From a virus, in the IMG/VR virus record IMGVR_UViG_3300049259_000040, positions 1-58,368 of that record: a stretch of DNA of 58,368 bases. One strand, 5' to 3'. This document shows positions 1-58,368 of the stretch, piece after piece (position 1 is the stretch's first letter; each line of letters opens with the position of its first letter). Under the pieces are notes generated by a model. That model made no database searches, had not been told where the DNA came from, and saw only the letters and a program-made list of their open reading frames with translations. Both the position numbers and the translations under genes were made by a program.

Positions 1-127
1 GGGAAACAATGGCAGACACGATTACGGTCAGCTTGATCGACGCAGACGCTTGGGAAGACGTATCGCCGCGGCAGTTCAAGGCGATCGGCGAGCGCTTCCT
101 GCACGAACGTCAACGGCGAATCGAGGA
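1..127. repeat. Terminal redundancy (assembly overlap), left copy
   Basis: These 127 bases are identical to the last 127 bases of the window. A perfect overlap of exactly 127 bases is what a de Bruijn assembler run with k=127 leaves at the ends of a circular contig. It is therefore read as proof of circular closure, not as a physical terminal repeat. The true genome length would be 58,241 bases. Confidence 0.95.
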
Positions 128-5237: not shown

Positions 5238-5265
5238 TTGACATGTCTCCGGCGCGGTGCATAAC
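5238..5265 (+). promoter_or_regulatory. Promoter of the dpdA-like gene
   Basis: TTGACA (5238-5243), a 16-base spacer, then CATAAC (5260-5265). The extended -35 GTGTTGACA and a -10 beginning CATAA match the promoter at 3940-3968 on the other strand. It lies 34 bases upstream of the start at 5299. Confidence 0.6.
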
Positions 5266-5298: not shown

Positions 5299-6126
5299 GT
5301 GCAGACGTTCTATCTCGGCGCTCATCGATACAACTGGGCATGCGACGGGCTGACCGACCAGTCGCTGTTCATCTCTGACCGCACGTTGCGTCGTCGTGTG
5401 ACTCCGTTCGCGCCGGCAGTTACGCGATGGGCGCTAGATAGCGGCGGCTTCACCGAGCTCTCGCAGAACCGATTGTGGACGGTTTCGCCTGCCGAGTACG
5501 CGCAACGTGTACGGCGCTACCAGCGCGAGCTTGGACTGATGGACTTCGCGGCGCAGCAAGACTGGATGTGCGAACCCGAGATGCTTGCGCACAATGGCCT
5601 ATCGGTCGTGACCCATCAGTCGTGGACGATCACCAACTACCTTGAGCTCCGCGAGCTCGCGCCGGAGGTGCCGTGGGCACCGACGGTGCAGGGGTGGAGC
5701 CTTGGTGACTACTGGCGCCACGTTGAGGAGTGGTACCGACGAGGTGTTGAGCTGCACGCGCTGCCTGTTGTCTGCGTGGGGTCGGTGTGCCGCCGAGAGA
5801 ATCCGGCTTCGGCCGCTAACATCTTGTCTTCGCTCGCGGCTGATGGACTCTCGCTCCATGCGTTCGGGGTCAAAGCTGAAGTGCTGGCGTTATGCCATGA
5901 GCAGATTCAGAGTTCTGACTCGATGGCCTGGTCAACGCACATGCGAGCCGAGCGTAATGCCGCAAAGAAAGCCGGGTTGCCGTACAAGCACCTCGACCCG
6001 AACAGCCTCACGTGCGGTCTGCAGTGGGTGGATAAGACAATCAATCGCGCCCGCGGCATCGGGCAGGTTGAGACGGATTGCCAAGACGAAACGGGTCAGC
6101 TTGAGATGTTCGAGGCTGCGTGCTGA
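5299..6126 (+). CDS. dpdA: DpdA-like deazapurine DNA transglycosylase (TGT fold)
   Basis: A 275-residue protein of the tRNA-guanine transglycosylase superfamily, most like the phage DpdA proteins that exchange guanine in DNA for a 7-deazaguanine base. Seen directly: ALDSGGFTEL at residues 45-54, the family DSGGF motif with the catalytic Asp (D47); a second conserved Asp in AAQQDWMCEP (D88); VVCVGSVCRR (157-166), a base-binding loop signature; LHAFGVK (186-192); and SSDSMAWS near 205-212, in the position of a TGT active-site Asp. Start is GTG with AAGGG upstream; the ATG two bases earlier is out of frame. It has its own promoter. No folE/queD/queE/queC-type precursor genes are in the genome, so precursor would have to come from the host. 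Known family members give resistance to host restriction. A standalone tRNA enzyme is less likely because the protein is short and lacks the TGT zinc site. Confidence 0.85.
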   Translation: MQTFYLGAHRYNWACDGLTDQSLFISDRTLRRRVTPFAPAVTRWALDSGGFTELSQNRLWTVSPAEYAQRVRRYQRELGLMDFAAQQDWMCEPEMLAHNGLSVVTHQSWTITNYLELRELAPEVPWAPTVQGWSLGDYWRHVEEWYRRGVELHALPVVCVGSVCRRENPASAANILSSLAADGLSLHAFGVKAEVLALCHEQIQSSDSMAWSTHMRAERNAAKKAGLPYKHLDPNSLTCGLQWVDKTINRARGIGQVETDCQDETGQLEMFEAAC

Positions 6127-13113: not shown

Positions 13114-13394
13114 CCAAGAAGCAATCGGTCAAAGAGCGCTTGGCGGAGTACATCGAGCCGCATCTCAAGCCAATGGTCACCGTGGTTGCGACCGTGGCCT
13201 ATCAGCCCGGGCGCGGCGCGATGGCGCAGATATCCGCAGCGGCGCTGCTCATCAAGACGGCGATCGAGTGCGACGAGAAGTCGGTCGAACTCACCGAGGA
13301 GCAACAGACGCGCGTCACGAGAGCGGTCGACATGCTCGAGCTAGAGCGCGAGTACCAAGAGCGCCGCGAGCGCGGTGAGTACGGCGTGTCCTGA
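13110..13394 (+). CDS. Candidate small terminase subunit
   Basis: A 94-residue helical protein whose stop shares a base with the large terminase start. Position directly upstream of terL, small size, a basic N-terminal helix (KKQSVKERLAEYIEPHLK) and a C-terminal charged coiled-coil-like helix (RAVDMLELEREYQERRERG) fit a terminase small subunit. Sequence alone does not identify the family, so the call rests on context. Confidence 0.4.
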   Translation: MTKKQSVKERLAEYIEPHLKPMVTVVATVAYQPGRGAMAQISAAALLIKTAIECDEKSVELTEEQQTRVTRAVDMLELEREYQERRERGEYGVS

Positions 13395-15199
13395 TGGAAG
13401 TTGTCGCCGCCAAGTCGCTGAGTAACAAGGAGGTCGTCGACGCCTTTTGGCACGGCGGCAACCTCAAGTTCCTCATGCACGACGGGCAGAGGCGCTGCCG
13501 CGACCAGATTCACGCTTGGCGAGCCATCGACCAGAACTCGGACACGCACAGTCTAATCGCTGGCAGCATGCCGCGCGTCTTCTGCGTCGCGAAAGCCGGC
13601 CGCTTCGGCGGGACAACGCTGTTGCTCTGGATCATGGCAGAGCTGCAAGTGTGGTTTGCCGAAAAGCACAAGCGCCCGATGTTTCTGCGCTTCACCTCGG
13701 CTTGGCAGAAGTCCATCGACGAGATTATCGGCGCGATCGTCCCGCAGTGCTTCGAGACGGCACCGCCCGAGTGCAGGCCTCAATACTTCGGCAAGCGCGG
13801 CACCAAGCCCGCTGGCCTGTACTTCCCAGTCTACGGGCCGATGAACGGCGGCAGCATCGCGCTCGCTGGTCTCGACATGAACCCGGACGCGACGCGCGGT
13901 CAGGCAAGCGATGGCGACGTCGTGTCCGAAGCGGCGTTCGTCAAGAAGCTCGATTACACCCTGCGCTCGGTCCTCTATCGCCAGTACCAGGGACGACCTT
14001 GGGCTCGCGCGTTCATCGAGAGCAGCGCGCCGAAGGACCTGCACACCGACTGGGAGCGCATCTACGTCCCTGACTGCAAGATGCGTGGCGCGTACTTCTC
14101 CGCGACGATCGAGGACAACTCGCGGCTGTCTCGCGCCGAGAAGGACGCGTTCATCTCGGCGGCCGGTGGCCGTGGCAATGCCAACTGCGAGCGCGAGTAT
14201 TTCAACGTCATCAGCGGCGACCCGCAGAAGCGGGTGTTTCCAGAGTTCGAGCCCGCGCAGTTCGTGCGCGACATGCCGCGACCCAAGCACGCCTACGCGC
14301 TCGCTGGCTTCGATCCCGGCTTTCGGCACCTATTCGGCGCGCTGTGGGCCTACTACGACTTCGAGCGCGCAACGATCGTGGTGCAGGACAGTTGGGCAGG
14401 CTCGAACGCCTCGACCGCCAAGGTGGCGTGCATCACAGCCGCTCGCGAGTACAGCCTCTACGGCGCGCTGCCTCCGATGTCGCTGTCGTTCATCCCTCTC
14501 GAACGCGACGACAATCGGCTCGGCTGGCGAGACTACCTGCGCGGCGATCGGTGTGAGGAGCTGGCTGACGACTTGTTCGAGCTGTCGACTATGGCGCCGA
14601 TCGATCGCCCCGACTACGAGCACCGGCCGGGTAAGTTCGTGCGCTTCGATCGGCCTGGACAATGGACGTACTACGACAACGTGTCGCGTCACGAGTTCAT
14701 GCCGAACCCCGAGACGCGCGTTGCCGACGTCGACCTGAAGCTCATCGCTGACATGCGTGAGACGTTCGGGTTCGACTTCCAGACGACGACCAAGGAAACG
14801 TTGCGCGGCATGGTGAACAACGCGCGTGCGTGGTTCTCGCAAGGTCGCATCGTGTTCTTGCCAGACTGCGGTCCGGTGATCGACCACGTGCACGCGGCGC
14901 AATGGGCCGATGACGGCAAGAAGCTCGACGAGCACAGCGTCTATGGTCACTACGACCTTGCGGCTGCGCTGACCTACGCTATCCGCTACTTCGCGCTGAT
15001 CGAGAACCTGAACCCGATGCCGCCAGTGGGCGTGATCGAGTCTCGCGATCGTCCCGGCGCAGTCGTCGAGCGCATGCCGTGGCAAACGACGCTCCCGCAC
15101 GAACTCGAAGTAGACCGACGCATCGAAGCCTTTGAGGCTGAACTCGCCGCCGAGCGCGGCAGGATGCGCGACCCCGTGAGAATGAGGCCATTCAAGTGA
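13394..15199 (+). CDS. terL: Large terminase subunit (packaging ATPase/nuclease)
   Basis: A 601-residue protein that translocates DNA into the prohead and cuts it. N-terminal ATPase: CVAKAGRFGGTTLLLW (residues 64-79) is a deviant Walker A in which the lysine sits early (K67), as in lambda gpA, rather than before the Thr. The likely Walker B is GDVVSEAAFV (about 174-183), keeping the catalytic Glu but with Ser where Asp is usual. C-terminal RNase-H-like nuclease: LAGFDPGFRHLFG near residue 297 supplies the first Asp, and HYDLAAALTYAIRY near residue 518 the last Asp. Full length for the family. Followed without gap by small genes rather than directly by the portal. Confidence 0.93.
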   Translation: MEVVAAKSLSNKEVVDAFWHGGNLKFLMHDGQRRCRDQIHAWRAIDQNSDTHSLIAGSMPRVFCVAKAGRFGGTTLLLWIMAELQVWFAEKHKRPMFLRFTSAWQKSIDEIIGAIVPQCFETAPPECRPQYFGKRGTKPAGLYFPVYGPMNGGSIALAGLDMNPDATRGQASDGDVVSEAAFVKKLDYTLRSVLYRQYQGRPWARAFIESSAPKDLHTDWERIYVPDCKMRGAYFSATIEDNSRLSRAEKDAFISAAGGRGNANCEREYFNVISGDPQKRVFPEFEPAQFVRDMPRPKHAYALAGFDPGFRHLFGALWAYYDFERATIVVQDSWAGSNASTAKVACITAAREYSLYGALPPMSLSFIPLERDDNRLGWRDYLRGDRCEELADDLFELSTMAPIDRPDYEHRPGKFVRFDRPGQWTYYDNVSRHEFMPNPETRVADVDLKLIADMRETFGFDFQTTTKETLRGMVNNARAWFSQGRIVFLPDCGPVIDHVHAAQWADDGKKLDEHSVYGHYDLAAALTYAIRYFALIENLNPMPPVGVIESRDRPGAVVERMPWQTTLPHELEVDRRIEAFEAELAAERGRMRDPVRMRPFK

Positions 15200-15372
15200 G
15201 CGCTGAAGAGAAGAACGAACTTGTGTACGGCGAGTGGAGCAACGCGCAGTTGCTCGCTGCTGTGATTACGCGCCTGTCGCACCAGGGGCCGAGCTACGAG
15301 AATGCGCAAGCCGCTGTTCATATCCGCACCGCGCTCCTGTGGATGGGAACGCCGAAGGAGAAGCTGCCATGA
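15196..15372 (+). CDS. Very small hypothetical protein (58 aa)
   Basis: A 58-residue protein (MSAEEKNELVYGEWSNAQLL...) with a GTG start overlapping the terL stop (GTGA) and a stop overlapping the next ATG. Helical; function unknown. Confidence 0.6.
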   Translation: MSAEEKNELVYGEWSNAQLLAAVITRLSHQGPSYENAQAAVHIRTALLWMGTPKEKLP

Positions 15373-15521
15373 TTAGCCGATCAAACGCGCTTCTCAATCT
15401 GCTAATCGCCCTGACGATGTTTGTATCAGGCTACCTGGTTGGCAGACAGACCATGGGCATGGCTGCCGTATCCTACTGTGGGTCCTGCGGACGCGAAGCG
15501 TTCAGGTCGGTGTGGCCATGA
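15369..15521 (+). CDS. Small membrane protein with CGSC motif
   Basis: A 50-residue protein: MISRSNALLNLLIALTMFVS is a hydrophobic N-terminal helix, followed by YLVGRQ and a CGSCGREAF segment. Probably an inner-membrane single-span protein. Coupled to both neighbours by overlaps. Confidence 0.55.
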   Translation: MISRSNALLNLLIALTMFVSGYLVGRQTMGMAAVSYCGSCGREAFRSVWP

Positions 15522-15865
15522 TCATCATCTCGATCATGTGCGCGACGCTGTTTGCTCTCGGGCTGCTCGCGTTCTTCTTCGACTGGTCGAAGCTGCGCCA
15601 GCCGAAGCCGCACGACGACTTCGCGCGCCGTATGTCTCAGGTGGAGTTCGACACGAAGCAATCGCTCTCGGAGATGCGCGCGACGATCGACACGTTACGA
15701 CGCGACATGCTCGGCCACGCCGACGACGCGCGACGAGCGGCGCTGCGTGTGACGAACGAGTTGGAAGACAAGCGCGTGTACTTCGACATGGCACTACAGC
15801 GGGCGGATAACGAGCGCTCGAAGACGATGCAAGACGCGGCCGACATGATGAGCCGCAGGAGATAG
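15518..15865 (+). CDS. Membrane-anchored coiled-coil protein (possible inner spanin)
   Basis: A 115-residue protein. Residues 1-22 are hydrophobic (MIIISIMCATLFALGLLAFF); the rest is a long charged helix with heptads (FDTKQSLSEMRATIDTLRRD to the end). N-terminal anchor plus periplasmic coiled coil is the design of i-spanins, but the outer partner is not adjacent (a Pro-rich lipoprotein is at 8285), so the assignment is tentative. It could instead be a structural scaffold-associated protein. Confidence 0.55.
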   Translation: MIIISIMCATLFALGLLAFFFDWSKLRQPKPHDDFARRMSQVEFDTKQSLSEMRATIDTLRRDMLGHADDARRAALRVTNELEDKRVYFDMALQRADNERSKTMQDAADMMSRRR

Positions 15866-15869
15866 CGAG

Positions 15870-16268
15870 ATGACTAATGACCAGGTATGGGCACTGTTCG
15901 AGCGTATGCAGGGCGAGATCGCCCGAGAGATTCGAAACCTACTGGGCGAGCCGCCCTATGATCAAAAGCTATTCGACGACGCGCAGCGCACGCGGCGCGT
16001 CGAATCGCTGAAGATTGTAGCGGCTGACCCCAGGAGCGAAGCAGAGCGTCATGAGGCGTGGCGTGAGCAGCATGTCGCGCTTGGCTGGACGCAGGGGGCG
16101 GAGTTCAAGCCGGAGATCAAGCAGCACACCAATCTAGTGCCGTTCGATCAACTTCCCGCGACCACGCAGAGCAAGGTCCGCATCTTCGACATCGTGGCGA
16201 AGTATGCGCAGGCAATCGTCCAAGACGAGGCTGAATACAAGACAGAGTATCCGTCGGAAGGACTTTGA
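15870..16268 (+). CDS. RyR-domain protein
   Basis: A 132-residue protein. Residues about 55-115 match the RyR domain (PF02026) pattern: E-R-H-E-A-W-R, then GWTQG, then K-Q-H-T-N-LVPFDQLP, then a helix beginning TTQSKVRIFD. RyR domains occur as stand-alone or fused modules in many phages and bacteria and are thought to bind a small ligand, possibly a nucleotide derivative. Here the copy is single and lies between terminase and portal, so it may be a minor virion or infected-cell protein. Ligand unknown. Confidence 0.65.
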   Translation: MTNDQVWALFERMQGEIAREIRNLLGEPPYDQKLFDDAQRTRRVESLKIVAADPRSEAERHEAWREQHVALGWTQGAEFKPEIKQHTNLVPFDQLPATTQSKVRIFDIVAKYAQAIVQDEAEYKTEYPSEGL

Positions 16269-16270
16269 AA

Positions 16271-16645
16271 ATGGAAGCCACACCCATCAAGCCTGAAGAG
16301 AAGTACGACGTGACGTTCTGGGACGGCAAAGCGCACGACCCGGAGATCAAGGAAGGCTCGCCCGAAGTTGTGCCCACCACGCCAGGCAGCAACGAACTGC
16401 CACGCGGCATCGTGGTCGGTTACGTCGGCAGCATCCTCGAAGGCGACGGCAACACCGTCCACCCCGGTGACGCGATCGTGAAGCTGTTCGTGAGCGGCCA
16501 GCTGGCAGCAGTCGTCGGCCTCGAGCGTCAGCGCGCGCTGACGTTGTTCGGCTTCGAGGAGCTGTCCGAAGACGAGGTCGAGGACGAAGATTCCGGCTTG
16601 CCGAAGCTGCCGGCGTCGAGTCTGACTAACAAAGAGGACGAGTGA
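16271..16645 (+). CDS. Hypothetical protein, acidic C-terminus
   Basis: A 124-residue protein. The ATG at 16271 has a GGAAGG site; a TTG six bases earlier is less likely. Beta-rich centre (RGIVVGYVGSILEGDG...VKLFVSGQLAAVVG) and a very acidic tail (ELSEDEVEDEDSG). Operon with the portal. No known family. Confidence 0.6.
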   Translation: MEATPIKPEEKYDVTFWDGKAHDPEIKEGSPEVVPTTPGSNELPRGIVVGYVGSILEGDGNTVHPGDAIVKLFVSGQLAAVVGLERQRALTLFGFEELSEDEVEDEDSGLPKLPASSLTNKEDE

Positions 16646-16647
16646 GC

Positions 16648-17250
16648 ATGGCCGCGCCCGACAAGACTCCCGAGCCAGCGAAGCTCCCAGCGGCATCGCC
16701 GTTCAAGTTCAAGATCGCCGAGATACCCGTCGACACGTTCGGCGGCATCGGCACGACGTCTGCCGAACTCGACGACCGCAACCCGCTCCAGGAGACGTAC
16801 TTCATCCACGTGCGCGACAAGTTCGAAGCAGCCGCCGCGAAGGAGTGGCTGTTCAAGAACGCACCCGAGGTGCCCTACGACAACCTTCGCGAGACGCTGC
16901 CTTTGGACAAGCTGACGCCTCGCAGTATCGTCATCCTGCTCGCCCGCAAGGGAACCATCATGCGTCCAGTCGAGCCTGCTCAGCCGGTCGAGGGGCGCAC
17001 GATGGAAGGTTTCCTCGCGCACAAGGATGTGCCTGTTGCGAAACTTGCCGAGCAGATGGCCGCGTACGGTCCGATCGAGGTCTCGCGCTTCTATCGCAAT
17101 CGCTCGCGGCTCTCTGGCGGCGGTCTGGACGTGAACGCGTTTCTCCACGAACTAGGGCTCCTCATTCACCCCTACACGTTCGGCTGGGTGGATGCGCCGA
17201 GTCGAGCCGACCAGCCTCCGGGCACGACCGTGTATCTCAAGCAAGTCTGA
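16648..17250 (+). CDS. Hypothetical protein upstream of the portal
   Basis: A 200-residue protein. ATG preferred over the overlapping GTG at 16642 because GAGGA is better spaced. Pro/Ala-rich N-terminus, then an alpha/beta region (TYFIHVRDKFEAAAAKEWLF). Placed in the packaging/head operon; possibly a minor head protein, unproven. Confidence 0.6.
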   Translation: MAAPDKTPEPAKLPAASPFKFKIAEIPVDTFGGIGTTSAELDDRNPLQETYFIHVRDKFEAAAAKEWLFKNAPEVPYDNLRETLPLDKLTPRSIVILLARKGTIMRPVEPAQPVEGRTMEGFLAHKDVPVAKLAEQMAAYGPIEVSRFYRNRSRLSGGGLDVNAFLHELGLLIHPYTFGWVDAPSRADQPPGTTVYLKQV

Positions 17251-17295
17251 AGTGACGCAACCTGAACCGAGCTTGCGGGGTAGTAGGCCGATGAG

Positions 17296-19665
17296 GTGGA
17301 CGGACAAGAAGTAGGACCGGAACAGCAGCAGGACGACGATCCGTTTGCGCCCGCCGTCGAGCCCGAGCCCAGTTACGTCAAAGAGAAGACGTATTGGGCC
17401 AAGTGGAAGGGCGACGACCTGATCGACGCGTTGAAGGAGAAAACGCGCGACTTCTACGAGGCTGCGCGACTTCAAGGCCTGCTCGATCGTTGGATTATCT
17501 CGTACGCGTTCCACCACGGCACGACGCCCGACGACTTGCGCGAGCTCGCGACGATGGTCGTCAACTTCACGGGCGCCGAGCTCGAGCGCGTGCGTTTCCA
17601 CATCAACTTGAACCGCAGCTACAACCGGCACAGCGCGATCATGGCGCTCGGCGAGAAGCCGGCGTTCAAGGCCAAGACGCTGAACAACGACCAGCGCAGC
17701 CTCGCGAAGGCTGAGCTGTCAGACAAGATCGTGAACGGCCTGTACGGTCGCTACTACGAGAAGTACGACGCGCCAGTGGCCGAGGGCGAAGGCTTCGCGG
17801 GCGCGTGCGGCACGCATACGAAGTGGGATTTCAAGAGCGGCGACGAGGTCACTGTCGACGCGCCGAGCAAGCGGCCTGTCATCGACCCGAACACTGGGCA
17901 GCCGGCGACTGACGGCCAGGGCAATCAGCTCCTGACCGACATGACTGACGAGCAAGGCAATCCCGTCACGCATCCCGTGCAGACGGTGAGCGGCGCTCCG
18001 CAGGTGTCGGTGTTCTACCCATGGAACAAGGTCATCGAGACGCAGACGACGGCGAACGGCGACGACCTGTGGACCATCATTCGCGAGCCTGACAACAAGT
18101 GGAACGTCATCGCGCAGTTTGGCGAGGAGTACACCGACGACGTCTTGGCGCAGGAGCCTGGGTTCAACGACGAGTACAGCTTCTGGCGTCTCTTCAACCT
18201 GCAAGCACTCGAGAGTCGCAACAAAGACACGCTGATCGTCCAGCACTTCTATCACGCACGCTGCCCCGCGATGCCGGACGGCCGCTACGTCGTGTTCGTC
18301 GGCGACGTCATGTTGTGGGATGGGCCGTGCCCGACGAAAGAAGGCCTGCCCATCAGCGAGATGTGCTCGTCCAAGTGGGTCGAGACGGTGTTTCCGTTCG
18401 CCGACAGCTGGGACATCGTCTCGCTGTGCCAAGCGCTCAATCAGTGCACGAGCGATGAGCTGCAAAACCTGTCGCTGTTCGGTCGACAGACGACGTACGG
18501 ATGGAAAGGCAGCGGCGTCACCGGCAGCGGCCTGACTAAAGGCACGCACTACGACCTGCCGCCAGACAGTAAGCCGCCCGGCGCAGTGATGCTCGCGCAG
18601 ATGCCGCCGACGCAGGAGTTCAAGTCGTACGTGCTGCAGATGATGGACCGCATGATGGGCCAGAACGGCACCACGCGCGGTGAGCCCGACGCGAACGTGC
18701 GCTCTGGCGAGATGGCCGCGCTCCTCGACTCCATCAGCATTCGCTATCAGAGCTTTCGCCAGCAAGCGGCGCGCCGCTACCGCATTCGCAACGCGCAAAT
18801 CATCGTCGACATGATCGCTCGCTACGGCGAGACGCAGTTCCTGGTCGACATCGCCGGCGTCGAGGATCGCAGCTACGTCATGTCGTTCACGAAGGACGAC
18901 CTTCAGGGCGTGCAGCGCATCGACATGGATGTGGTCAGCCCGATGATGCAGACCGTCAGCGGACGGCTGCAATGGATGAAGGAGCTGCTCGCGATCCAGA
19001 ACCCGCAGGACCGCGCGGGTGCGTACGACTTCGTGGTCAACGGCGACCCCGACACGTTCTTGTTCCGCGATCGCTCTGGCCGCGAGCTGGTGCGCCGCGA
19101 GAACGAACGACTCATCACCGGGAGCGATGACGTTCAGCCATCGGTGACCGACAACCCGTTCATCCACGTCCCGATGCACCAAGCGGCGATCGACAGGCTG
19201 CTCAGCGCTGACGAGCCTGACATGGCAGCGGTCAACCGCGTGCGCATGCACATGCTGATGCATCAGTCGACGTACCTGATGGATGCGCAGCCGCTCATGT
19301 GCCAGCAGCTGGGCTTCCAGCCGCCACCGGCCATCGGCCCGACGCAGCAGCAGATGCAACAGGCGCAGTTCGATCCGAGCACGCCGATGGGCAACGCCGC
19401 CTGGCGCTTCCAACTGCAGGTGCAGGGTGGCGCTCCCATCGTTCCTCCCGTTGCGCCGCTCGCGCCCAATGGCGCCCAGCTGAACCAGGGCGCTCCTGGA
19501 CAGCCACCGCCGAACCAAGCAGCCGGCGCACCGACGTCGCTCGGAGCGCCCAGCGACCCGAGCTCGCCCGGCACTTCGGGCACGCCCCAAACCGATCACC
19601 CCGGCACGGGCACTCCCATGCCGCAACCGTCTCAGCCGCCGCCGCAAGCCGGCGCGCAAGCGTAG
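17296..19665 (+). CDS. Portal protein
   Basis: A 789-residue protein located between terminase and scaffold/coat genes; size and order match the large portals of podoviruses (P22 portal is about 725 residues). N-terminal helices with WAKWKGDDLIDALKEKTRDF, a central alpha/beta core, a stem/wing part rich in Arg and Gln, and a long Pro/Gln/Gly-rich tail (about residues 680-789) that is probably disordered. It would form the dodecameric DNA channel and docking site for terminase. Start is GTG. An open frame of 646 residues on the opposite strand is a composition shadow. Confidence 0.8.
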   Translation: MDGQEVGPEQQQDDDPFAPAVEPEPSYVKEKTYWAKWKGDDLIDALKEKTRDFYEAARLQGLLDRWIISYAFHHGTTPDDLRELATMVVNFTGAELERVRFHINLNRSYNRHSAIMALGEKPAFKAKTLNNDQRSLAKAELSDKIVNGLYGRYYEKYDAPVAEGEGFAGACGTHTKWDFKSGDEVTVDAPSKRPVIDPNTGQPATDGQGNQLLTDMTDEQGNPVTHPVQTVSGAPQVSVFYPWNKVIETQTTANGDDLWTIIREPDNKWNVIAQFGEEYTDDVLAQEPGFNDEYSFWRLFNLQALESRNKDTLIVQHFYHARCPAMPDGRYVVFVGDVMLWDGPCPTKEGLPISEMCSSKWVETVFPFADSWDIVSLCQALNQCTSDELQNLSLFGRQTTYGWKGSGVTGSGLTKGTHYDLPPDSKPPGAVMLAQMPPTQEFKSYVLQMMDRMMGQNGTTRGEPDANVRSGEMAALLDSISIRYQSFRQQAARRYRIRNAQIIVDMIARYGETQFLVDIAGVEDRSYVMSFTKDDLQGVQRIDMDVVSPMMQTVSGRLQWMKELLAIQNPQDRAGAYDFVVNGDPDTFLFRDRSGRELVRRENERLITGSDDVQPSVTDNPFIHVPMHQAAIDRLLSADEPDMAAVNRVRMHMLMHQSTYLMDAQPLMCQQLGFQPPPAIGPTQQQMQQAQFDPSTPMGNAAWRFQLQVQGGAPIVPPVAPLAPNGAQLNQGAPGQPPPNQAAGAPTSLGAPSDPSSPGTSGTPQTDHPGTGTPMPQPSQPPPQAGAQA

Positions 19666-19674
19666 GAGCCGACA

Positions 19675-21045
19675 GTGTCAGAAGGACCTTTCAGCGGAGG
19701 TGCCGAGGGCATCTCGATGTCAGTAGGCGAGGGCAGTGACGCCCCCGGCCAGAGCGAACAGCAGCCCGCACAAGACCAGGGGCAGCGTCAGCAAGAGCAG
19801 CGTGCGCCTCAGCGCCAGCGCGCTCCGCAGAAGCCGCAGCGAGCGTCTATCGGCGACTTTGGCCGGTACGCGGGCCAGCCCGAGACGTACACCGACGTCG
19901 ATGGCTCGCCCGAGGACCCGTCAGACCCGCTGTCAGGGCTGGTGGACCGATCGGTCCAGGGGCAGGCAGGCCAGGAGCTGGCGACCGTCGCGGACGAGCA
20001 GGAGGCCGTGCGCAAGCAGTCGGCGAAGGACGCGCGCGCCGCCAACGGCAAGCCCGAGCCGGAGTACGAGGCGACGCTCGTCGAAGATGACGCGCGCGTG
20101 CAGTCCGACCCGCGCTACGCCGAGTGGCAGAAGAAGGCTGAGCAGCTCGACGCCATCATGACGGGGCAGCTCGAGCATGACGATTACCTCGGCATGCTCA
20201 TCCCTCACGAGTTCGACGGCGGTCGGAAGGGAACCATCAGCGTCAAAGAGCTGAAGCGCGGCAACCTGCGCGAGGCCGACTATCACAAGAAGCTGCGCGA
20301 ACTGCACCAGCTGCGGCAGCGCTACGAGGTCGCCGAGCAGGGCCTGCACCAGTTCGTCGGCGCGATCGTCAGCGGTGAACCGAACCAGTTCTTCGCCGCG
20401 ATGAACATCGTCCCCGGCGCGATGGAGACGTTCAAGAAGTCGGCGCTCGTGTTCGGCTTCCAACTCGACGCCGAGAACCAGCTTGCGCCCGAGCTGCGTC
20501 AGGCGATGCAGGAGAAGCGCCAGCTTCAAGCGATCGCACAGCGTCAGCAGCTGGAGATTCAGAATCTGCAGCGCATGCAGCAACAGCAGGTGCAGCAGCA
20601 GCCCGGGCCCGACGCCGCGTTCCTCGAGCATCAGCTGCAGCAGTTCCTGCCGCTCGCCGCCAAGCGTCTTGCCGAGCGCGGCACGCCGTACGTGGACAGC
20701 CCGCTCGCGCAGAGGCTCGGCAAAGAGACGTGGGACGTGTTCATCCAGAACTTCAACGGCAGCGTGACGCTCGATGACGTGGTCGACGTGCTCGCGAGCA
20801 TCCAGCAGCAGGTCGCTGACTACATCGCGAGCGGGTACGTCCAGCATGTTCCGGAGGCGTCGAGACAGCTTCCCCCGGTCGGCCGCACTGCACCAGCACC
20901 TTCGGGAGCGCTCGCTCAGCGCGCCGGCGCACCCAACTACGCCGGCAGCGTGAACCAGGCGCCGCGCGGCAGCGGAGCGTCGAACGGTCGCCCGCCCGAG
21001 CGCATGCGCATCGGTGACATCGCTCAAATCAACAGGATGCGCTGA
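19675..21045 (+). CDS. Scaffolding protein
   Basis: A 456-residue protein between portal and coat. Low-complexity Gln/Pro/Arg-rich N-terminus (residues 25-55), then a charged, mostly helical body with coiled coil around residues 275-310 (RQQLEIQNLQRMQQQQ). Such a long, hydrophilic, Gln-rich helical protein directly upstream of the coat gene is the usual pattern for head scaffolds that shape the prohead and leave. No protease catalytic motif seen. GTG start with GGAG at good spacing. Confidence 0.7.
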   Translation: MSEGPFSGGAEGISMSVGEGSDAPGQSEQQPAQDQGQRQQEQRAPQRQRAPQKPQRASIGDFGRYAGQPETYTDVDGSPEDPSDPLSGLVDRSVQGQAGQELATVADEQEAVRKQSAKDARAANGKPEPEYEATLVEDDARVQSDPRYAEWQKKAEQLDAIMTGQLEHDDYLGMLIPHEFDGGRKGTISVKELKRGNLREADYHKKLRELHQLRQRYEVAEQGLHQFVGAIVSGEPNQFFAAMNIVPGAMETFKKSALVFGFQLDAENQLAPELRQAMQEKRQLQAIAQRQQLEIQNLQRMQQQQVQQQPGPDAAFLEHQLQQFLPLAAKRLAERGTPYVDSPLAQRLGKETWDVFIQNFNGSVTLDDVVDVLASIQQQVADYIASGYVQHVPEASRQLPPVGRTAPAPSGALAQRAGAPNYAGSVNQAPRGSGASNGRPPERMRIGDIAQINRMR

Positions 21046-21470
21046 TGTCGTCGGATGACTTCGACCCAACACGCACGCCGCCAGCGCCCGAGCCCGTCAC
21101 GCCGATACGTGAGCGGCCTATCAGCCGACAACAGGCGAAGTGGATAGAGAACAGGACGCGCGGCGCAGTCGACGCGATGATCGGCTCGACCGAGCGGCGG
21201 CAGAAGCTCGCCGACGAGGCCATCGCTGAGCGCGAGGCCAAGAACTTGGAGCTTCAGCGCAAATGCCTGGACTACGAGTTCATCAACCTGCGCCTGCGCA
21301 TAGTCCTCGAGGCGTGCGCGCGCCGTCTTGGCGGACGCGTCGTGTTCGACCGTGAAGAGATTTTGAAGCAGTGCGCGAGAGGTCGCGTAGTGGTGGATGA
21401 AGAGAGTGACAGAATCACGTTGGCGCTTCTTCCAGAGTTAGAAATCGCCACATCTGACACTGAGTGTTGA
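21045..21470 (+). CDS. Hypothetical protein downstream of scaffold
   Basis: A 141-residue protein with Pro-rich start (PTRTPPAPEPVTPIRERP) and a helical middle (EAIAEREAKNLELQRKCLDY). Its ATG overlaps the scaffold stop. Possibly an accessory head-assembly factor; no family recognised. Confidence 0.55.
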   Translation: MSSDDFDPTRTPPAPEPVTPIRERPISRQQAKWIENRTRGAVDAMIGSTERRQKLADEAIAEREAKNLELQRKCLDYEFINLRLRIVLEACARRLGGRVVFDREEILKQCARGRVVVDEESDRITLALLPELEIATSDTEC

Positions 21471-21737
21471 CTTCGTTGCCACTACATAACAAATCTGTCT
21501 TAGCCCGGGACTGCGCGTTAGCTACCCCGCAACACACGCAGTCAGGGTGTCCAAACCCAAACTGACACTGATACCTGAAGCGACGGACTGACAAAGACCA
21601 AACGCTCGCACTCGACGGACGCCAAGCACGCTCACTGAGCACTTAGGCCAGCCGTCATCCAGTACGCGAGATAGTAGTCGGCGCAGCACACCTCGGCGGA
21701 CGGGACCAACCCTGTTTTCCAATCATGAGGTGATGCA
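21471..21737. promoter_or_regulatory. Leader region of the major capsid gene
   Basis: A 267-base gap in an otherwise tightly packed late operon. It starts with GTGTTGACT (TTGACT 21467-21472), the same extended -35 as other phage promoters, but the -10 is poor (ACAAAT at 16-base spacing). The segment is rich in A/C and lacks a gene. It may be an extra promoter plus long 5' leader raising coat expression. GAGGTGATGCA before ATG 21738 is a good ribosome site. Confidence 0.4.
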
Positions 21738-23084
21738 ATGGCGTCATTGGCTAACGTCAATGGTCTTTTCAAGCAACGTTACGGCCGCTGGATCGAGCCG
21801 CTTCCCGACGAGCACACGCTCGCGGACTTCGGCGACTTCATCCCGGCAGAGGCGCGTCCCGGCCTCGGCTACAACTTCCCGATCCTGAGTGCGATCGAGC
21901 ACGGTCAAACGGCCGACATCTCGGGCACTGCGTTCGCGCTGAACAGCGCGATCGACTCGAACGTGAAGAACGCGAACTTGGATGGCTCGACCATCATGTT
22001 GCGCGCGTCGATCCCGTACGACGTCATCTACAAGTCGTTGAACGGCACCGGCCAAGGCAACCAAGGCGGCGCGTTCAAGACCGCATTGGACCAAGCGGTC
22101 CAGGCGATGCTGATGGGCGCTGGGCTCTACCGCGAGCTCGCTCTCGCGTACGGCCCCGGCAGCAGCACGACGCTCGGCAGTAACATCGGCGTCGTCAACA
22201 GCATCACTGCTGGGACGAACGTCTCGGCGAACCTGACGATCTCGCTCACGCAGTCTTCGTGGATTCCAGGTCTCTGGATTCTCGCGCAGAACATGCTGAT
22301 CGACCTGTTCAACGCAGCCGGCACCACGCTGCAGTCGAACGGGCTGAAGGTCGTGGGCCGACCGGACCCGTCGAAGGCTCAGATCACCATCATCGCGACC
22401 GCTGCGACGACCACGGGCGGCACGTTCGTCCCTGTGGCTGGCAACGTGATCGTTCCGTACGGCTGGTTCAACAAGTCGTGCGTCGGCCTCGAAGCCATCT
22501 ACAACAACACCGGCACGCTGTTCGGTATCGACGCTTCCACGGTCGCTCCGTGGCGCGCGAACGTGTTCAGCGCCGGCAACGCTGCCCTGACTCGCGCGAA
22601 GATCATGTCTTACTGCGCGATCATCTCCATCAACGGCACGAAGAACGGAGGCAGCCTGTTCGTCAGTGCGCCGACGTTCGCCGCGCTCGCTGAGGAGTTC
22701 AACTCGGTGATGACGCCGTCAGCTTCGGGCATCGCCAGCGTCACCACATACGACGGCAACAACAACAAGCGTAGCAAGGAAATCGGCTCGTCCGAGCTTG
22801 CCTACGTGACCGCCGCTGGCGTGGTGAAAGTCGTCGTCTATCAGTACATGAAGCAAGGCGAAGCCTTCTTCATCGCGAACGACAACTTCCGCCGCGTGGG
22901 TTCGACCGACCTCACGATGCGTCCGATCGGCGGCGGCGCGGAAGCGTTCTTCCTGCAAGCGCCGAACAACGCGGGTGCTGAGATTCGTATCTACAGCAAC
23001 CAGGCTCCAGTGTTCGAGATGCCCTACCGGAACTTCCTGGTGAACAGCGTCGTCAACACCGGCTACGACGTGCCGCCCGTCTGA
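21738..23084 (+). CDS. Major capsid (coat) protein
   Basis: A 448-residue protein following the scaffold gene and preceded by its own leader with a strong ribosome site; length is close to P22 coat (430). N-terminal helix-turn (LFKQRYGRWIEPLPDEHTL), long beta-rich middle with many Gly, Thr and Asn, and a compact C-terminal domain ending YRNFLVNSVVNTGYDVPPV. A GC hairpin follows at 23099-23123, which would separate coat mRNA from the rest. No motif proves the HK97 fold, but order, size and composition do. Confidence 0.82.
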   Translation: MASLANVNGLFKQRYGRWIEPLPDEHTLADFGDFIPAEARPGLGYNFPILSAIEHGQTADISGTAFALNSAIDSNVKNANLDGSTIMLRASIPYDVIYKSLNGTGQGNQGGAFKTALDQAVQAMLMGAGLYRELALAYGPGSSTTLGSNIGVVNSITAGTNVSANLTISLTQSSWIPGLWILAQNMLIDLFNAAGTTLQSNGLKVVGRPDPSKAQITIIATAATTTGGTFVPVAGNVIVPYGWFNKSCVGLEAIYNNTGTLFGIDASTVAPWRANVFSAGNAALTRAKIMSYCAIISINGTKNGGSLFVSAPTFAALAEEFNSVMTPSASGIASVTTYDGNNNKRSKEIGSSELAYVTAAGVVKVVVYQYMKQGEAFFIANDNFRRVGSTDLTMRPIGGGAEAFFLQAPNNAGAEIRIYSNQAPVFEMPYRNFLVNSVVNTGYDVPPV

Positions 23085-23098
23085 TGTGAGCTGAGGCA

Positions 23099-23123
23099 GC
23101 GGGCGGTCATGGTGGCCGCCCGC
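23099..23123 (+). terminator. Hairpin after the coat gene
   Basis: GCGGGCGG (23099-23106) and CCGCCCGC (23116-23123) form a perfect 8-bp stem with a 9-base loop, 15 bases after the coat stop. No T-run; acts as a partial terminator or 3' stabiliser. Confidence 0.5.
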
Positions 23124-23152
23124 GTCTCGCCCCGACTCTCATTGGAGGAATC

Positions 23153-23698
23153 ATGGCAATCGTCGTTCAAGACTGCCCACTCGAAAGCTTCAAGGTTTTG
23201 CCCGGCGTATCCCCGCCGACCCCGTTTCTCGAATACACCCAGACCGGCGTTCTCGCGACACAGTTCCCGTTCACGACTCTCGTCTTCCCTGACAGCGTCT
23301 TGAGCGGCGGATTCTGGATGGTGTCGACTGGCGTTGTCGGCGCTACACCGGCGATCTCGATTGCGATCGACTGGTACTTGGCCAGCGGCGCAACCACAGC
23401 ATTGAATGTGCGCTTTGGCGCCGCCATTGGCGTCGTCGGGTCAACCGCAGCTGGCATTTTCAACGTTCCGTCGAAGGCGCTAGCCACTGCCGTGATGTCG
23501 ACAACCGCTGCGCCTTCTACGGCGTTCGGTTCGGTGCGCACTGCCATCGCTGGAGGCACTGACGGCGGCACTCTCGCTGCCGCGAACGGGCCGTTCACGA
23601 TCGCGATCAAGGTGTTCCGCGATGGCACTGACGCGCTCGATACGGCGGTCGGCGACGTCAAGGTCCGCAAAATCACCGTCCTTTACCAAGACACATGA
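23153..23698 (+). CDS. Head decoration or surface protein, beta-sandwich
   Basis: A 181-residue, beta-rich, Ala/Gly/Val-rich protein between two hairpins, with a strong GGAGGAATC ribosome site, so probably abundant. The C-terminal signature IKVFRDGTDALDTAVGDVKV resembles the end of the protein at 36042 (VKIFRDPANAGDTNTADAV), suggesting a shared jelly-roll-like fold. Position after coat suggests a decoration or head-fibre protein. Confidence 0.55.
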   Translation: MAIVVQDCPLESFKVLPGVSPPTPFLEYTQTGVLATQFPFTTLVFPDSVLSGGFWMVSTGVVGATPAISIAIDWYLASGATTALNVRFGAAIGVVGSTAAGIFNVPSKALATAVMSTTAAPSTAFGSVRTAIAGGTDGGTLAAANGPFTIAIKVFRDGTDALDTAVGDVKVRKITVLYQDT

Positions 23699-23706
23699 GT
23701 TTCCGG

Positions 23707-23740
23707 GCCAGCGCGGTCTGGTTGGCTCCGCCGCGCTGGC
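23707..23740 (+). terminator. Intrinsic terminator candidate
   Basis: GCCAGCGCGG (23707-23716) pairs perfectly with CCGCGCTGGC (23731-23740), loop 14 bases, followed by TTCTGGTTT. The strongest terminator-like hairpin in the late region; it would isolate the coat/decoration transcript. Confidence 0.6.
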
Positions 23741-23763
23741 TTCTGGTTTGAAAGGTTTTGCGA

Positions 23764-24474
23764 ATGCCGATGTTCGATCCTTCAATGTTACAGGGCCTGG
23801 CCCAACAGCTCGCCGCTCGCGGCGGCGGACAGGGCGAGGGCGGCGGCGTTCCTGGTGCCGGCGCACCTGAAGGCGGCATGCCGGCAGGGAACACCGGCGT
23901 CGTCCCTCCGTGGCTCGCGCAGATTCGCGGTGGCAACCCGTTGGGTGGACTGCCACCAGGCGCAGCGCAGGGCGGCGGCGGATTCAACCCGCTCGCGGCA
24001 CTGCAAGCACGCTTCGGCGGCATGGGCGGTCATGGACATGGTCACGGTGGCTTCCAGCTGCCTCCGTGGCTGGCTGCGATGCGCGGTCAGGGTGGACAGG
24101 GCGGCACGCCCATCGTCCCGCAAGGTGGCGGGCAAGGCGCAGGCATGCAGGTCCCGCAGAGTGGTGGCATGAGCGCTGGACTCTGGAACCCGGCGCAGTG
24201 GGGCGCAGGCAATCCCAACGCTCAGGCGATCGCTCAGCGCGTGATGCCAGTGGCCGGCGCGAGCCCGCAAGCAGCTCCGCAGACTCCAGCAGCAGCTCCG
24301 GCGCAGACGCAAGCTCGTGCGTGGGACCCATCGTCATGGGGCGCTGGCAAGCCGGACGCTCAAGCGCTGATGCATCAGAACATGGCGACTGACGGTGGCG
24401 AAGAGGGCGTCGTCCAAGGCGCCAAACAGCCCACGGTCGCTGGCGCCAGTCAGCGCGTCAGGCGGTCGTACTGA
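23764..24474 (+). CDS. Gly/Gln-rich hypothetical virion protein
   Basis: A 236-residue low-complexity protein rich in Gly, Gln, Ala and Pro. The ATG follows GAAAGG. Internal repeats: LWNPAQWGAGNPNAQAIAQR and AWDPSSWGAGKPDAQALMHQ share the pattern W-x-P-x-x-WGAG-x-P-x-AQA, and PPWLAQIRGG/PPWLAAMRGQ repeat earlier. Likely a disordered structural or ejection-related protein. Adjacent to 24474 with a one-base overlap. Confidence 0.6.
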   Translation: MPMFDPSMLQGLAQQLAARGGGQGEGGGVPGAGAPEGGMPAGNTGVVPPWLAQIRGGNPLGGLPPGAAQGGGGFNPLAALQARFGGMGGHGHGHGGFQLPPWLAAMRGQGGQGGTPIVPQGGGQGAGMQVPQSGGMSAGLWNPAQWGAGNPNAQAIAQRVMPVAGASPQAAPQTPAAAPAQTQARAWDPSSWGAGKPDAQALMHQNMATDGGEEGVVQGAKQPTVAGASQRVRRSY

Positions 24475-25007
24475 TGGCGTTTCCCATTCTCGCGCTCGCG
24501 TCGATTGCGGCTGACCTGATGTCCAAGAAGGACGAGGACAACCGCTGGAAGACTGCGAACCTCGGACAGATCGAACAGTCACGCCTCGGCGACTTCAAGC
24601 AGATCGTCCAGGGCGGACGCGCGACGCACGAGTACGGACAGCTTGCTCGGCCGACTGGCAGCAGCGGGCTTGGCGGCGCGCTGCAAGCGCTGGGTTCGCT
24701 CGCAGGTGCATTCGGTGGCGGCTCCGAGAGCGAGACGCCGTCGACCAACCTCGAGAAGCCAGACTTGCTCAAGAACTACGACCCCGAGGCTGACGCCAAG
24801 TACAAGGGCGGCCTCTCGCTATTCAACGAGGACGCTGGCAGCGGCGTTCCCAAGGACATCAGTGCGGCGACCGAGAAGCCGCTCGTCATCGGCGCGATCG
24901 ATGTCTCGCCCGGCAAGCTCACCGATAACCCAGACGACGTGAGCGACAGCCTGACCAAGTCTGTCATCAAGCGCAGCACTCCGAGGTTTGGCGGCTCGTT
25001 CTTCTGA
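24474..25007 (+). CDS. Hypothetical virion-region protein
   Basis: A 177-residue protein with a hydrophobic start (MAFPILALASIAADLMSKKD) and a Gly-rich centre. The N-terminus resembles membrane-penetrating starts of ejection proteins, but no family is recognised. Part of the head-to-tail gene run. Confidence 0.55.
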   Translation: MAFPILALASIAADLMSKKDEDNRWKTANLGQIEQSRLGDFKQIVQGGRATHEYGQLARPTGSSGLGGALQALGSLAGAFGGGSESETPSTNLEKPDLLKNYDPEADAKYKGGLSLFNEDAGSGVPKDISAATEKPLVIGAIDVSPGKLTDNPDDVSDSLTKSVIKRSTPRFGGSFF

Positions 25008-25020
25008 GAGGCGGTAGCGC

Positions 25021-25980
25021 TTGAACACGACGGAGCTGATAGCGATCGTTCGCCGCAACTGCATGCTCGAGGATGGAGCGGTTGACTACACGGACACGGT
25101 CATCCTGCGCGAACTCACCGACGCGTTGACGACCAAGTTCGAGCGCTACGTGTTGGACGCGAAGGCGAACTACTGGATCCACAACTTCGACATCGCGCTG
25201 ACCAGCGGGCAGGACTCGTATCGTCTGCCCACGCGTGCGATCGGCGTGAGCAAGGTCGAACTCGCGGGACCTTCGCCGGCTGCGACCGGCTGGGCTCGCT
25301 TGCCGCAGGTGAGCGAAAACAACATCAACTACTTCCAGAGCCCGATCCAGTCGATCGACCAGCCGCAACGCTGGCTCCTGCGCGGCGATAGCGTCGTGCT
25401 CGACCCGTGCCCAGCGAGCGGCTTCAACCTGCGTATCTGGTACTACGTGAAGCCAAGTCGGCTCACACCAGTTCAGGCCATCGGCAACATCTCAGCCGTT
25501 GTTCTCGGTCCGACGCCGCAGATTCAGTACGATTCCGTGCCGCTCGGATACAACTCGGCCGGTAGTAGCTTTGCGCTCACCACGTCGACGCCTATCGACG
25601 TGCTCTCAACTGGCTCGTGGCACGAGCTGAAGCTGGTCAACCAGCTCGCTGCCAGCGTTGGTGGCGCGTCGATGAACTTCCCGGTTGGCACCGACCTGTC
25701 TGACGTGCAGGTCGGTGACCTCGTTCGCGGCGGCGACAACACCGAGTTCCCTCAGATTCCCGAGGACTATCACCGCACGCTTGCTGACATCGCGAGCGTC
25801 AAGATCCTCATTCAGCGCGACTTTCAGAACAAGGCGCTCGGCTACGCGCAGGACGCCAACGCCGACATTCAGCGGTTCGCGAACATGATCTCCCAGCGCG
25901 TGCAGGAGGAGTCGTTCACGCACCGCGCCACGCTACCGTCGCTCCAGCTTGGGCGTTACTGGGGAGGCTACGGGCGCTGA
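25021..25980 (+). CDS. Head-tail adaptor (P22 gp4-like) protein
   Basis: A 319-residue protein. The N-terminus (TELIAIVRRNCMLEDGAVDY, then a helix TDTVILRELTDALTTKF) has the all-helical pattern of phage adaptor proteins that bind the portal ring; an inserted beta domain covers about residues 55-240, and a C-terminal helical segment completes it. TTG start with GAGGCGG upstream. Position before the 872-residue tail protein fits the connector order portal-adaptor-nozzle. Assigned by pattern and synteny. Confidence 0.6.
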   Translation: MNTTELIAIVRRNCMLEDGAVDYTDTVILRELTDALTTKFERYVLDAKANYWIHNFDIALTSGQDSYRLPTRAIGVSKVELAGPSPAATGWARLPQVSENNINYFQSPIQSIDQPQRWLLRGDSVVLDPCPASGFNLRIWYYVKPSRLTPVQAIGNISAVVLGPTPQIQYDSVPLGYNSAGSSFALTTSTPIDVLSTGSWHELKLVNQLAASVGGASMNFPVGTDLSDVQVGDLVRGGDNTEFPQIPEDYHRTLADIASVKILIQRDFQNKALGYAQDANADIQRFANMISQRVQEESFTHRATLPSLQLGRYWGGYGR

Positions 25981-28598: not shown

Positions 28599-28975
28599 TG
28601 CCCGGCATTCGCAACCGCGTCAAGAGCATCCGCAACGCAACCTGGGGCAATGGCGGCAAGGACGGCGCTGCATCCGCTCGTGACGTCGGTGAGTCCATCC
28701 GCGACATCGATCGCGCGTGGCGCACCAACCTGACGCTGAACCGCATCGACTTGTCGCAGGCGTACACGCCGCCCATCGCCATCAGTTCGCCGTTCGTCCC
28801 TGCCGCGCTCATCGTCGGCAAGGTGCAGGTGACGCGCGACATCACGTTCGTGCCCGGCGTCTCCGCTGACTGGTCGTACGTCGGTGGCGAGATTCGCATC
28901 TCGAAGCTCTCGAACTCGGCGGGCGAGCTCGTCGTCGGCACGTCGTACGACATCACGATCGTGGTGATTGGATAG
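28598..28975 (+). CDS. Small structural protein
   Basis: A 125-residue protein with a basic N-terminus (MPGIRNRVKSIRNATWGNGG), then a helix and a beta-rich C-terminal half (VQVTRDITFVPGVSADWSYV). One-base overlap with the nozzle gene. Could be a tail-knob or needle-like component; unproven. Confidence 0.5.
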   Translation: MPGIRNRVKSIRNATWGNGGKDGAASARDVGESIRDIDRAWRTNLTLNRIDLSQAYTPPIAISSPFVPAALIVGKVQVTRDITFVPGVSADWSYVGGEIRISKLSNSAGELVVGTSYDITIVVIG

Positions 28976-28978
28976 GTT

Positions 28979-44086: not shown

Positions 44087-44248
44087 TCACTCATCGGACA
44101 ATCCCCATGCGGGATTCGACTCGTTCGGGTCATAGATCACCTCACCAGTTGATTGTGCGTACACAGTTCCGTCGCTCGTCCTGACCAGCCGTGTGTCGTG
44201 CTCGGCGTCGTACAGCGCCTGCAGCTGGGCTGCGATGTCAGGCGCTTT
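44087..44248 (-). CDS. Open frame without a normal start, joined to the Sak4-like gene
   Basis: A 53-codon frame with protein-like composition (YDAEHDTRLVRTSDGTVYAQ) ending TGA at 44087. It has no ATG, and GTG occurs only late (CTG codons are present earlier). The ATPase gene upstream ends ATG-AAA-AGC-GCC-TGA in a different frame at 44238-44248. A +1 shift at AAAA would fuse the ATPase to this frame (MK to APDIAAQ). It may be a frameshifted C-terminal extension, a CTG-started gene, or the result of a homopolymer error. Confidence 0.4.
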   Translation of the reverse strand, partial: KAPDIAAQLQALYDAEHDTRLVRTSDGTVYAQSTGEVIYDPNESNPAWGLSDE

Positions 44249-48268: not shown

Positions 48269-48640
48269 TCACTCCGCCCAGCACGCGCTGATGCGTGGCA
48301 GGCCGTTGTGCTCCAATGCCTCGTCAAACCCTTCGCGCACGAAGGGCAGGGCTCTTGCTGTCGTCTCCTCGTTGCCAGGGATGAGCCAGATGAGATCGGC
48401 GTCGGTGACCACGTCGTAGCTGTCGTCTGCGAGCTCGCACGCGGCCCTCCATTGCTCGTAGGCGCGTTCGCCTAGCTCACGGGCCTTGCGCTGTTCGGCG
48501 AGCGTTAGAGGCGGTAGGATGCGAACGTGGGAAGAATGACTATGGAGAGGACCCGATGATTCGTGCACCGGGTCCTCTCCACTTCCCCGTCCATCACCTC
48601 TCGGTGCTCCTGTCGCGATGACGGCTGCTTGCGTTGTCAT
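48269..48640 (-). CDS. Hypothetical protein
   Basis: A 123-residue protein with a low-complexity Gly/Ser/His-rich start and a helical folded C-terminal half (LAEQRKARELGERAYEQWRA ... ICH-free, ending SACWAE). ATGA overlap with the HNH gene. Function unknown. Confidence 0.5.
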   Translation of the reverse strand: MTTQAAVIATGAPRGDGRGSGEDPVHESSGPLHSHSSHVRILPPLTLAEQRKARELGERAYEQWRAACELADDSYDVVTDADLIWLIPGNEETTARALPFVREGFDEALEHNGLPRISACWAE

Positions 48641-58235: not shown

Positions 58236-58248
58236 CGAACGGGGAAAC
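58236..58248 (+). promoter_or_regulatory. Upstream element CGAACGGGGAAAC
   Basis: Exact copy, one base before the ATG at 58250 (the gene at position 9 on the circle). Confidence 0.7.
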
Positions 58249-58368
58249 AATGGCAGACACGATTACGGTCAGCTTGATCGACGCAGACGCTTGGGAAGAC
58301 GTATCGCCGCGGCAGTTCAAGGCGATCGGCGAGCGCTTCCTGCACGAACGTCAACGGCGAATCGAGGA
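58242..58368. repeat. Terminal redundancy (assembly overlap), right copy
   Basis: Identical to positions 1-127 and containing the first 39 codons of the gene at position 9. Joining the ends gives a continuous map with the promoter element intact. Confidence 0.95.

What the first reader, a model, noticed from the sequence alone, without database searches (positions are those of the whole stretch)
5299..6126. Lone DpdA-like transglycosylase without precursor genes
The protein has the DSGGF, GSVCRR and SDSMAWS signatures of phage DpdA, the enzyme that places 7-deazaguanine bases into DNA. Most known systems carry folE/queD/queE/queC or gat-type genes; none is visible here. The phage may use host preQ0 or preQ1, giving a minimal one-gene anti-restriction system under its own promoter.
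Basis: partly seen in the sequence, partly recalled or inferred. Interest (0 to 1): 0.75.

Follow-up and report, generated by a model that had tools for sequence, protein, structure and literature searches.

The report
Lone phage DNA-guanine exchange enzyme (DpdA)
This virus carries a single gene for an enzyme that probably swaps ordinary guanine in DNA for a modified base it must get from its host; such solitary genes are already known to be common in phages, so this is an ordinary member of a known group.

Summary
ORF 5299-6126 (+, 275 aa, GTG start) is a DpdA-family transglycosylase: Pfam DpdA E 4.9e-54, no tRNA-TGT match. Its predicted model is best matched by 7ui4, "DNA preQ0 insertase DpdA", and the conserved residues are intact. 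The record ends in a 127-bp direct repeat, so the genome is probably complete. No QueC, QueD or VUT/YhhQ gene was found.

The framing does not hold. "DpdA without precursor genes" was the largest published class in 2019 (76 phages, PMC6884629). In this lineage 46 of 49 records of 20 kb or more lack QueC. The one LC-MS-tested lone-DpdA mycobacteriophage, Orion, was unmodified; Salmonella phage 7-11 carried about 0.02% of Gs. "Minimal anti-restriction system" is therefore unproven, and "own promoter" is weak.

Added here: the gene is accessory, absent from 5 of 5 structural relatives. The window protein has lost its relatives' Cys-rich C-terminal motif. In 46 of 171 relatives dpdA lies directly beside a VUT/YhhQ-like transporter gene, a likely salvage pair that the window lacks.

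The parts
5299..6126 (+). dpdA: DpdA-family DNA guanine transglycosylase, 275 aa, GTG start
   Evidence: predicted fold pLDDT 92.1, best PDB match 7ui4
5437..5451 (+). DSGGF motif (residues 47-51); D47 invariant
   Evidence: 153 of 153 sequences have D47; D72 of phage 9g DpdA aligns
5560..5562 (+). D88, invariant
   Evidence: 153 of 153
5779..5796 (+). GSVCRR motif (residues 161-166)
   Evidence: G161 153/153, C164 152/153, R165 152/153, R166 151/153
5857..5859 (+). H187, aligned with H196 of phage 9g DpdA, the histidine that PMC6884629 says DpdA2 lacks
   Evidence: 153 of 153; 9g numbering; alignment
5914..5934 (+). SDSMAWS motif (residues 206-212); D207 invariant
   Evidence: D207 153/153; D215 of 9g DpdA aligns
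5983..6006 (+). site of the lost Cys-rich motif: residue 236 is Ser (Cys in 141 of 153), residue 233 is Asp (Cys in 114 of 153)
   Evidence: that the motif binds zinc is inference
5238..5265 (+). promoter-like TTGACA-N16-CATAAC in the 97-nt gap before dpdA (read by eye)
   Evidence: the consensus scan reports no site
1..127 (.). terminal direct repeat, left copy
   Evidence: exact match with 58242-58368
58242..58368 (.). terminal direct repeat, right copy

Best explanation
The gene encodes an accessory (moron) DpdA of a temperate tailed phage. It most likely works like TGT and DpdA: an Asp attacks C1' of a deoxyguanosine in DNA, guanine leaves, and a free 7-deazaguanine base (preQ0 most likely, possibly preQ1) takes its place. 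The phage seems to make and import no such base itself, so any modification depends on what the host makes or salvages and is probably sparse and host-dependent. Shown here: family, fold, intact conserved residues, no precursor or transporter gene found, absence from structural relatives. Inferred: activity, DNA as substrate, identity of the base, any protective effect.
For: Pfam DpdA E 4.9e-54 and no match to TGT (PF01702) at E<=10. AlphaFold model, mean pLDDT 92.1, from 72 sequences; best PDB match 7ui4, DNA preQ0 insertase DpdA, Foldseek E 4.1e-7, VIA Z 18.2 over 237 residues. Eight core residues invariant in 153 of 153, and the core is shared with phage 9g DpdA, whose expression alone in E. 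coli puts dPreQ0 into plasmid DNA from host precursor (PMC6884629). Relatives lie in mobile elements: of 152 neighbourhoods, 35 have an integrase family, 22 a DNA methylase family and 15 a Prim-Pol. 46 of 171 relatives sit beside a queuosine-precursor-type transporter, which ties the lineage to salvaged bases. Phage integrase at 41477-42250; dpdA absent from 5 of 5 structural relatives with positive controls ringing.
Against: VIA cannot separate DpdA from TGT by fold (Z 18.2 against 17.3-18.1). Orion, a lone-DpdA mycobacteriophage, has no detectable modification (PMC6884629). The window protein has lost C-terminal cysteines that most relatives keep. 12 of 50 genomes carrying this lineage have neither full QueC nor a VUT match, so a precursor source is not always visible. 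The host of this phage is unknown.
Confidence: 0.6

Rival explanations
1. The gene is a DpdA by descent, but in this phage and its host it makes no modification: no precursor is available, or the enzyme has decayed. It is carried as neutral or host-conditional cargo.
For: Orion result (PMC6884629). Lost Cys-rich motif and a long branch, 0.86 against a median of 0.21. Accessory status.
Against: Every residue invariant in the 153 sequences is kept, the frame is open with a coding-like signal, and the model is confident; decay would be expected to touch these.
Confidence: 0.25
2. The lone lineage has moved to another base or another nucleic acid: a transglycosylase that uses a purine analogue other than preQ0/preQ1, or acts on RNA other than tRNA.
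For: 12 of 50 carrier genomes lack both full QueC and a VUT match. Hutinet et al. note that singleton DpdAs form clusters of their own and may have diverged in function. 43 of 50 carrier genomes have no TGT, so the gene persists without a Q pathway.
Against: The pairing with a VUT/YhhQ-type transporter inside the same lineage, and QueC/QueD/QueE/FolE-like genes near dpdA in 4 of 171 loci, point to 7-deazaguanines. Draft genomes may miss genes.
Confidence: 0.12
3. A tRNA-guanine transglycosylase that alters host tRNA.
For: Same fold; TGT rows reach Z 17.3-18.1. PHROGs labels the family queuine tRNA-ribosyltransferase.
Against: No TGT (PF01702) match at E<=10 against DpdA at 4.9e-54. 275 aa against about 350-392 in most listed TGT chains. 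Recurrent DNA methylase and mobile-element neighbours of relatives.
Confidence: 0.03

Closest known systems
Lone-DpdA phages (group three of Hutinet et al. 2019, PMC6884629: Mycobacterium phage Orion, Salmonella phage 7-11)
   Same: One DpdA gene, no preQ0 or G+ synthesis genes; the phage relatives of the window protein are nearly all mycobacteriophage genes, at 36-43% identity in most listed rows (60 of 399 rows shown).
   Different: In the tree the window falls, with weak support (SH-aLRT 80-82), among viral rows and Myxococcota, Planctomycetota and some actinobacterial rows, apart from the mycobacteriophage rows. It lacks the Cys-rich C-terminal motif.
DpdA of Enterobacteria phage 9g (dG+ pathway)
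   Same: Conserved core including the HGFG histidine (H196 in 9g, H187 here).
   Different: 17% identity; 9g carries GTP cyclohydrolase, QueD-type, QueC-type and QueE-type genes beside dpdA.
Bacterial DpdA, PDB 7ui4
   Same: Best structural match.
   Different: 413-residue chain, 12% identity. In bacterial dpd islands dpdA goes with dpdB and other dpd genes (PMC11888242, passages); none was recognised here.

Membership tests
DpdA (PF23859) | Match above the family's curated cut-off | tested here: met
   183.7 bits against 27, residues 3-254
DpdA (PF23859) | Conserved Asp residues and the histidine that separates DpdA from DpdA2 in PMC6884629 | tested here: met
   D47, D88, H187, D207 in 153/153; H187 aligns with 9g H196
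DpdA (PF23859) | TGT-like fold | tested here: met
   7ui4 Z 18.2, TGTs Z 17.3-18.1
DpdA (PF23859) | Inserts a 7-deazaguanine base into DNA | not testable with these tools
   needs LC-MS or an enzyme assay
Lone-DpdA phages (group three of PMC6884629) | DpdA without preQ0 or G+ synthesis genes in the genome | tested here: met
   QueC and QueD absent at E<=10; no folE/que/gat family in the PHROGs and Pfam scans of ORFs; 127-bp terminal repeat. FolE, QueE, QueF not searched one by one
tRNA-guanine transglycosylase (PF01702) | Match to the TGT profile | tested here: not met
   no PF01702 row at E<=10
tRNA-guanine transglycosylase (PF01702) | C-terminal zinc site (recalled from TGT structures) | tested here: inconclusive
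   relatives have a Cys-rich motif here, the window has Ser/Asp; metal binding not tested
vut-dpdA salvage pair (as described here) | VUT/YhhQ-like gene directly beside dpdA | tested here: not met
   no hit in 717 window frames; no frame with 3 or more membrane segments

The most novel reading that the evidence does not exclude
This DpdA lineage is a mobile-element enzyme of salvage. It travels alone or coupled to its own base importer, and its lone members, like this one that has shed the C-terminal Cys motif, exchange guanine in DNA for whatever purine analogue the cell offers, perhaps not preQ0 at all, since 12 of 50 carrier genomes show neither QueC nor VUT.
Probability: 0.12. Interest if true: 0.6.

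Novelty: new member of a known kind. Interest (0 to 1): 0.27.

Why it matters
What lone DpdAs do has been open since at least 2019: they were the largest class in that survey, yet the two tested phages were unmodified or barely modified. The window adds a probably complete genome in which the gene is accessory and stripped of a motif. The wider lineage supplies the more useful lead: about a quarter of the loci examined pair dpdA with a transporter gene, which makes the salvage idea directly testable with two genes in a laboratory strain.

Tried and rejected
VUT-DpdA fusion: frame lengths of 440 and 477 aa in two records suggested one. Checking frames showed VUT and DpdA in no case in the same open frame; rejected.

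Hidden transporter or partner in the window: none. Window neighbours fall in none of the neighbour clusters.

Host: relatives by DpdA and by a Sak4-like protein (3 of 282 Myxococcota genomes; no other window gene matched in those 3.6-kb loci) do not settle it. Three structural proteins found no relative in IMG/VR; one found five.

Pairing against QueC in carrier genomes: QueC in 9 of 18 VUT-paired and 15 of 32 unpaired genomes, so pairing neither replaces nor follows QueC. The 50 genomes come from 50 of the 80 genome loci, chosen by hand, one locus per genome; one of the unpaired loci (L112) lies in a genome that also holds a paired locus (L129).

Sequence search of solved structures found nothing relevant. 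No tRNA and no Rfam family in the window. A single-sequence scan of IMG/VR found no relative; the alignment did.

Full report
Observation. The ORF at 5299-6126 is real: 275 codons from GTG to TGA. It matches Pfam DpdA (PF23859) at E 4.9e-54 over residues 3-254, with no other Pfam family at E<=10, and phrog_1279 at 3.4e-58; NCBIfam has no match.

Genome. The window is an entire virus record of 58,368 bases. Its first and last 127 bases are identical, as in an assembled circular or terminally redundant genome, so the unique length would be 58,241. I read it as probably complete. My gene caller gave 83 genes. Recognised: integrase 41477-42250 (-), Sak4-like 44238-45299 (-), DnaB-like helicase 52132-53439, HNH 48637-49449 (-); in the containers a spanin, repressor-like HTH proteins, a tail-lysozyme and a CHAP match, and head proteins. 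An integrase and repressors point to a temperate tailed phage.

Absence of precursor genes. QueC and QueD profiles gave no match at E<=10 in six frames, with 14 and 9 of 14 control genomes ringing. PHROGs named no folE, que or gat family (10 proteins) or in the 97 ORFs of the three containers; Pfam was run on 76 of those 97. An HMM of the lineage's VUT transporters found nothing in 717 frames, and no frame has three membrane segments.

Enzyme. AlphaFold with 72 sequences gave mean pLDDT 92.1, pTM 0.87. The best PDB match is 7ui4, DpdA (Foldseek E 4.1e-7; VIA Z 18.2, 237 residues, rmsd 3.9), with TGT rows close behind at Z 17.3-18.1. Fold alone therefore does not separate DNA from tRNA enzymes; sequence does. 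In 153 distinct sequences D47, D88, H106, G132, G161, H187, D207 and S208 never vary. H187 aligns with H196 of phage 9g DpdA, the residue that Hutinet et al. say DpdA2 lacks (PMC6884629, parts 1-4 of 7 read). One difference stands out: near residues 229-236 most relatives have His and Cys (C at 236 in 141 of 153, at 233 in 114 of 153), and the window has Ser and Asp. Zinc binding there is inference.

Relatives. tblastn: 399 of 50,697 phage records, 391 of them Mycobacterium phages, and 54 of 72,556 plasmid records, 27 Streptomyces. IMG/VR: 282 relatives, 80 kept. Prokaryote genomes: 220 relatives, 80 kept, mostly Actinomycetota. In a tree of 153 rows the window has a long branch (0.86, median 0.21) and sits, with support of only 80-82, among unpaired viral rows and Myxococcota, Planctomycetota and a few actinobacterial rows. 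Neighbourhoods within 5 kb in 152 loci hold an integrase family (35 loci), a DNA methylase family (22) and Prim-Pol (15): many of these genes travel on mobile elements.

Lone or not. Of 49 records of 20 kb or more (49 of the 80 viral loci), 3 have QueC and 12 have a VUT match. With an HMM built here, 46 of 171 loci (18 of 80 viral, 26 of 80 genome, 1 of 5 phage, 1 of 6 plasmid) have a VUT gene beside dpdA on the same strand, upstream in 41 and downstream in 5. In 36 of the 41 the VUT stop lies within 6 nt of the start of the DpdA match, which suggests translational coupling. Some rows are near-copies (L132, L134, L136 and L138 have identical DpdA). The six transporters tested score below NCBIfam's cut-off for queuosine precursor transporter (27-46 bits against 50.95), so their substrate is inferred. 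Transporters in phage que clusters are in print (EC151, PMC8310023, passages), and YhhQ occurs in about 9% of bacterial dpd islands (PMC11888242, passages). A transporter-dpdA pair without synthesis genes was not seen in the listings of three searches.

Precursor in carriers. Among 50 carrier genomes, full QueC is in 24, TGT in 7 and VUT in 28. Twelve, all with unpaired dpdA, have neither QueC nor VUT; by locus title seven of them are Actinomadura. Drafts may miss genes, and the 50 were picked by hand from 80.

Accessory status. Five IMG/VR records share a 448-aa protein of the head region with the window (59-61% identity), and the order of the structural genes. None of the 5 has DpdA at E<=10, while the window and 3 further records with DpdA ring in the same search. 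One of the five is only 19 kb, so its absence says little.

Literature and verdict. PMC6884629 reports 182 viruses, with DpdA-only phages the largest group (76). LC-MS found no modification in Orion and 50 dADG per million nt in 7-11. 9g dpdA alone in E. coli gave 790 or 84 dPreQ0 per million nt, without the EcoRI resistance seen with dG+. So the window is a new member of a known class. A host-fed, sparse modification is the likeliest function (0.6); no modification in its present setting is the main rival (0.25). Interest 0.27: the finding itself is ordinary, and the transporter pairing in its relatives is the part worth a follow-up.

Noticed in passing
L073 9489-10753, L132 7477-8765, L004 3992-5292 and 43 more loci: A divergent VUT/YhhQ-like transporter gene lies directly beside dpdA on the same strand in 46 of 171 loci, upstream in 41 and downstream in 5: a possible two-gene salvage module.
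   Followed up: partly
L172 3132-6494 and 21 more loci: A DNA methylase family (Pfam C5 methylase, with an N6_N4 match) recurs within 5 kb of dpdA in 22 of 152 loci.
   Followed up: no
L100-L102, L104, L107, L108, L113: Lone dpdA recurs in seven Actinomadura genomes in which neither full QueC nor VUT was found.
   Followed up: partly
L022 9992-10813: The window's sister row in the tree (support 82) also lacks the Cys-rich motif.
   Followed up: no
window 13394-30982: Structural genes share their order with five IMG/VR phage records of 61-64% GC at 27-61% identity; no near-DNA relative of 15000-39500 is in the phage collection.
   Followed up: partly
L011 6242-7156, L013 1088-2188: PAPS-reductase-family genes lie within about 3 kb of dpdA on two plasmids.
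   Followed up: no
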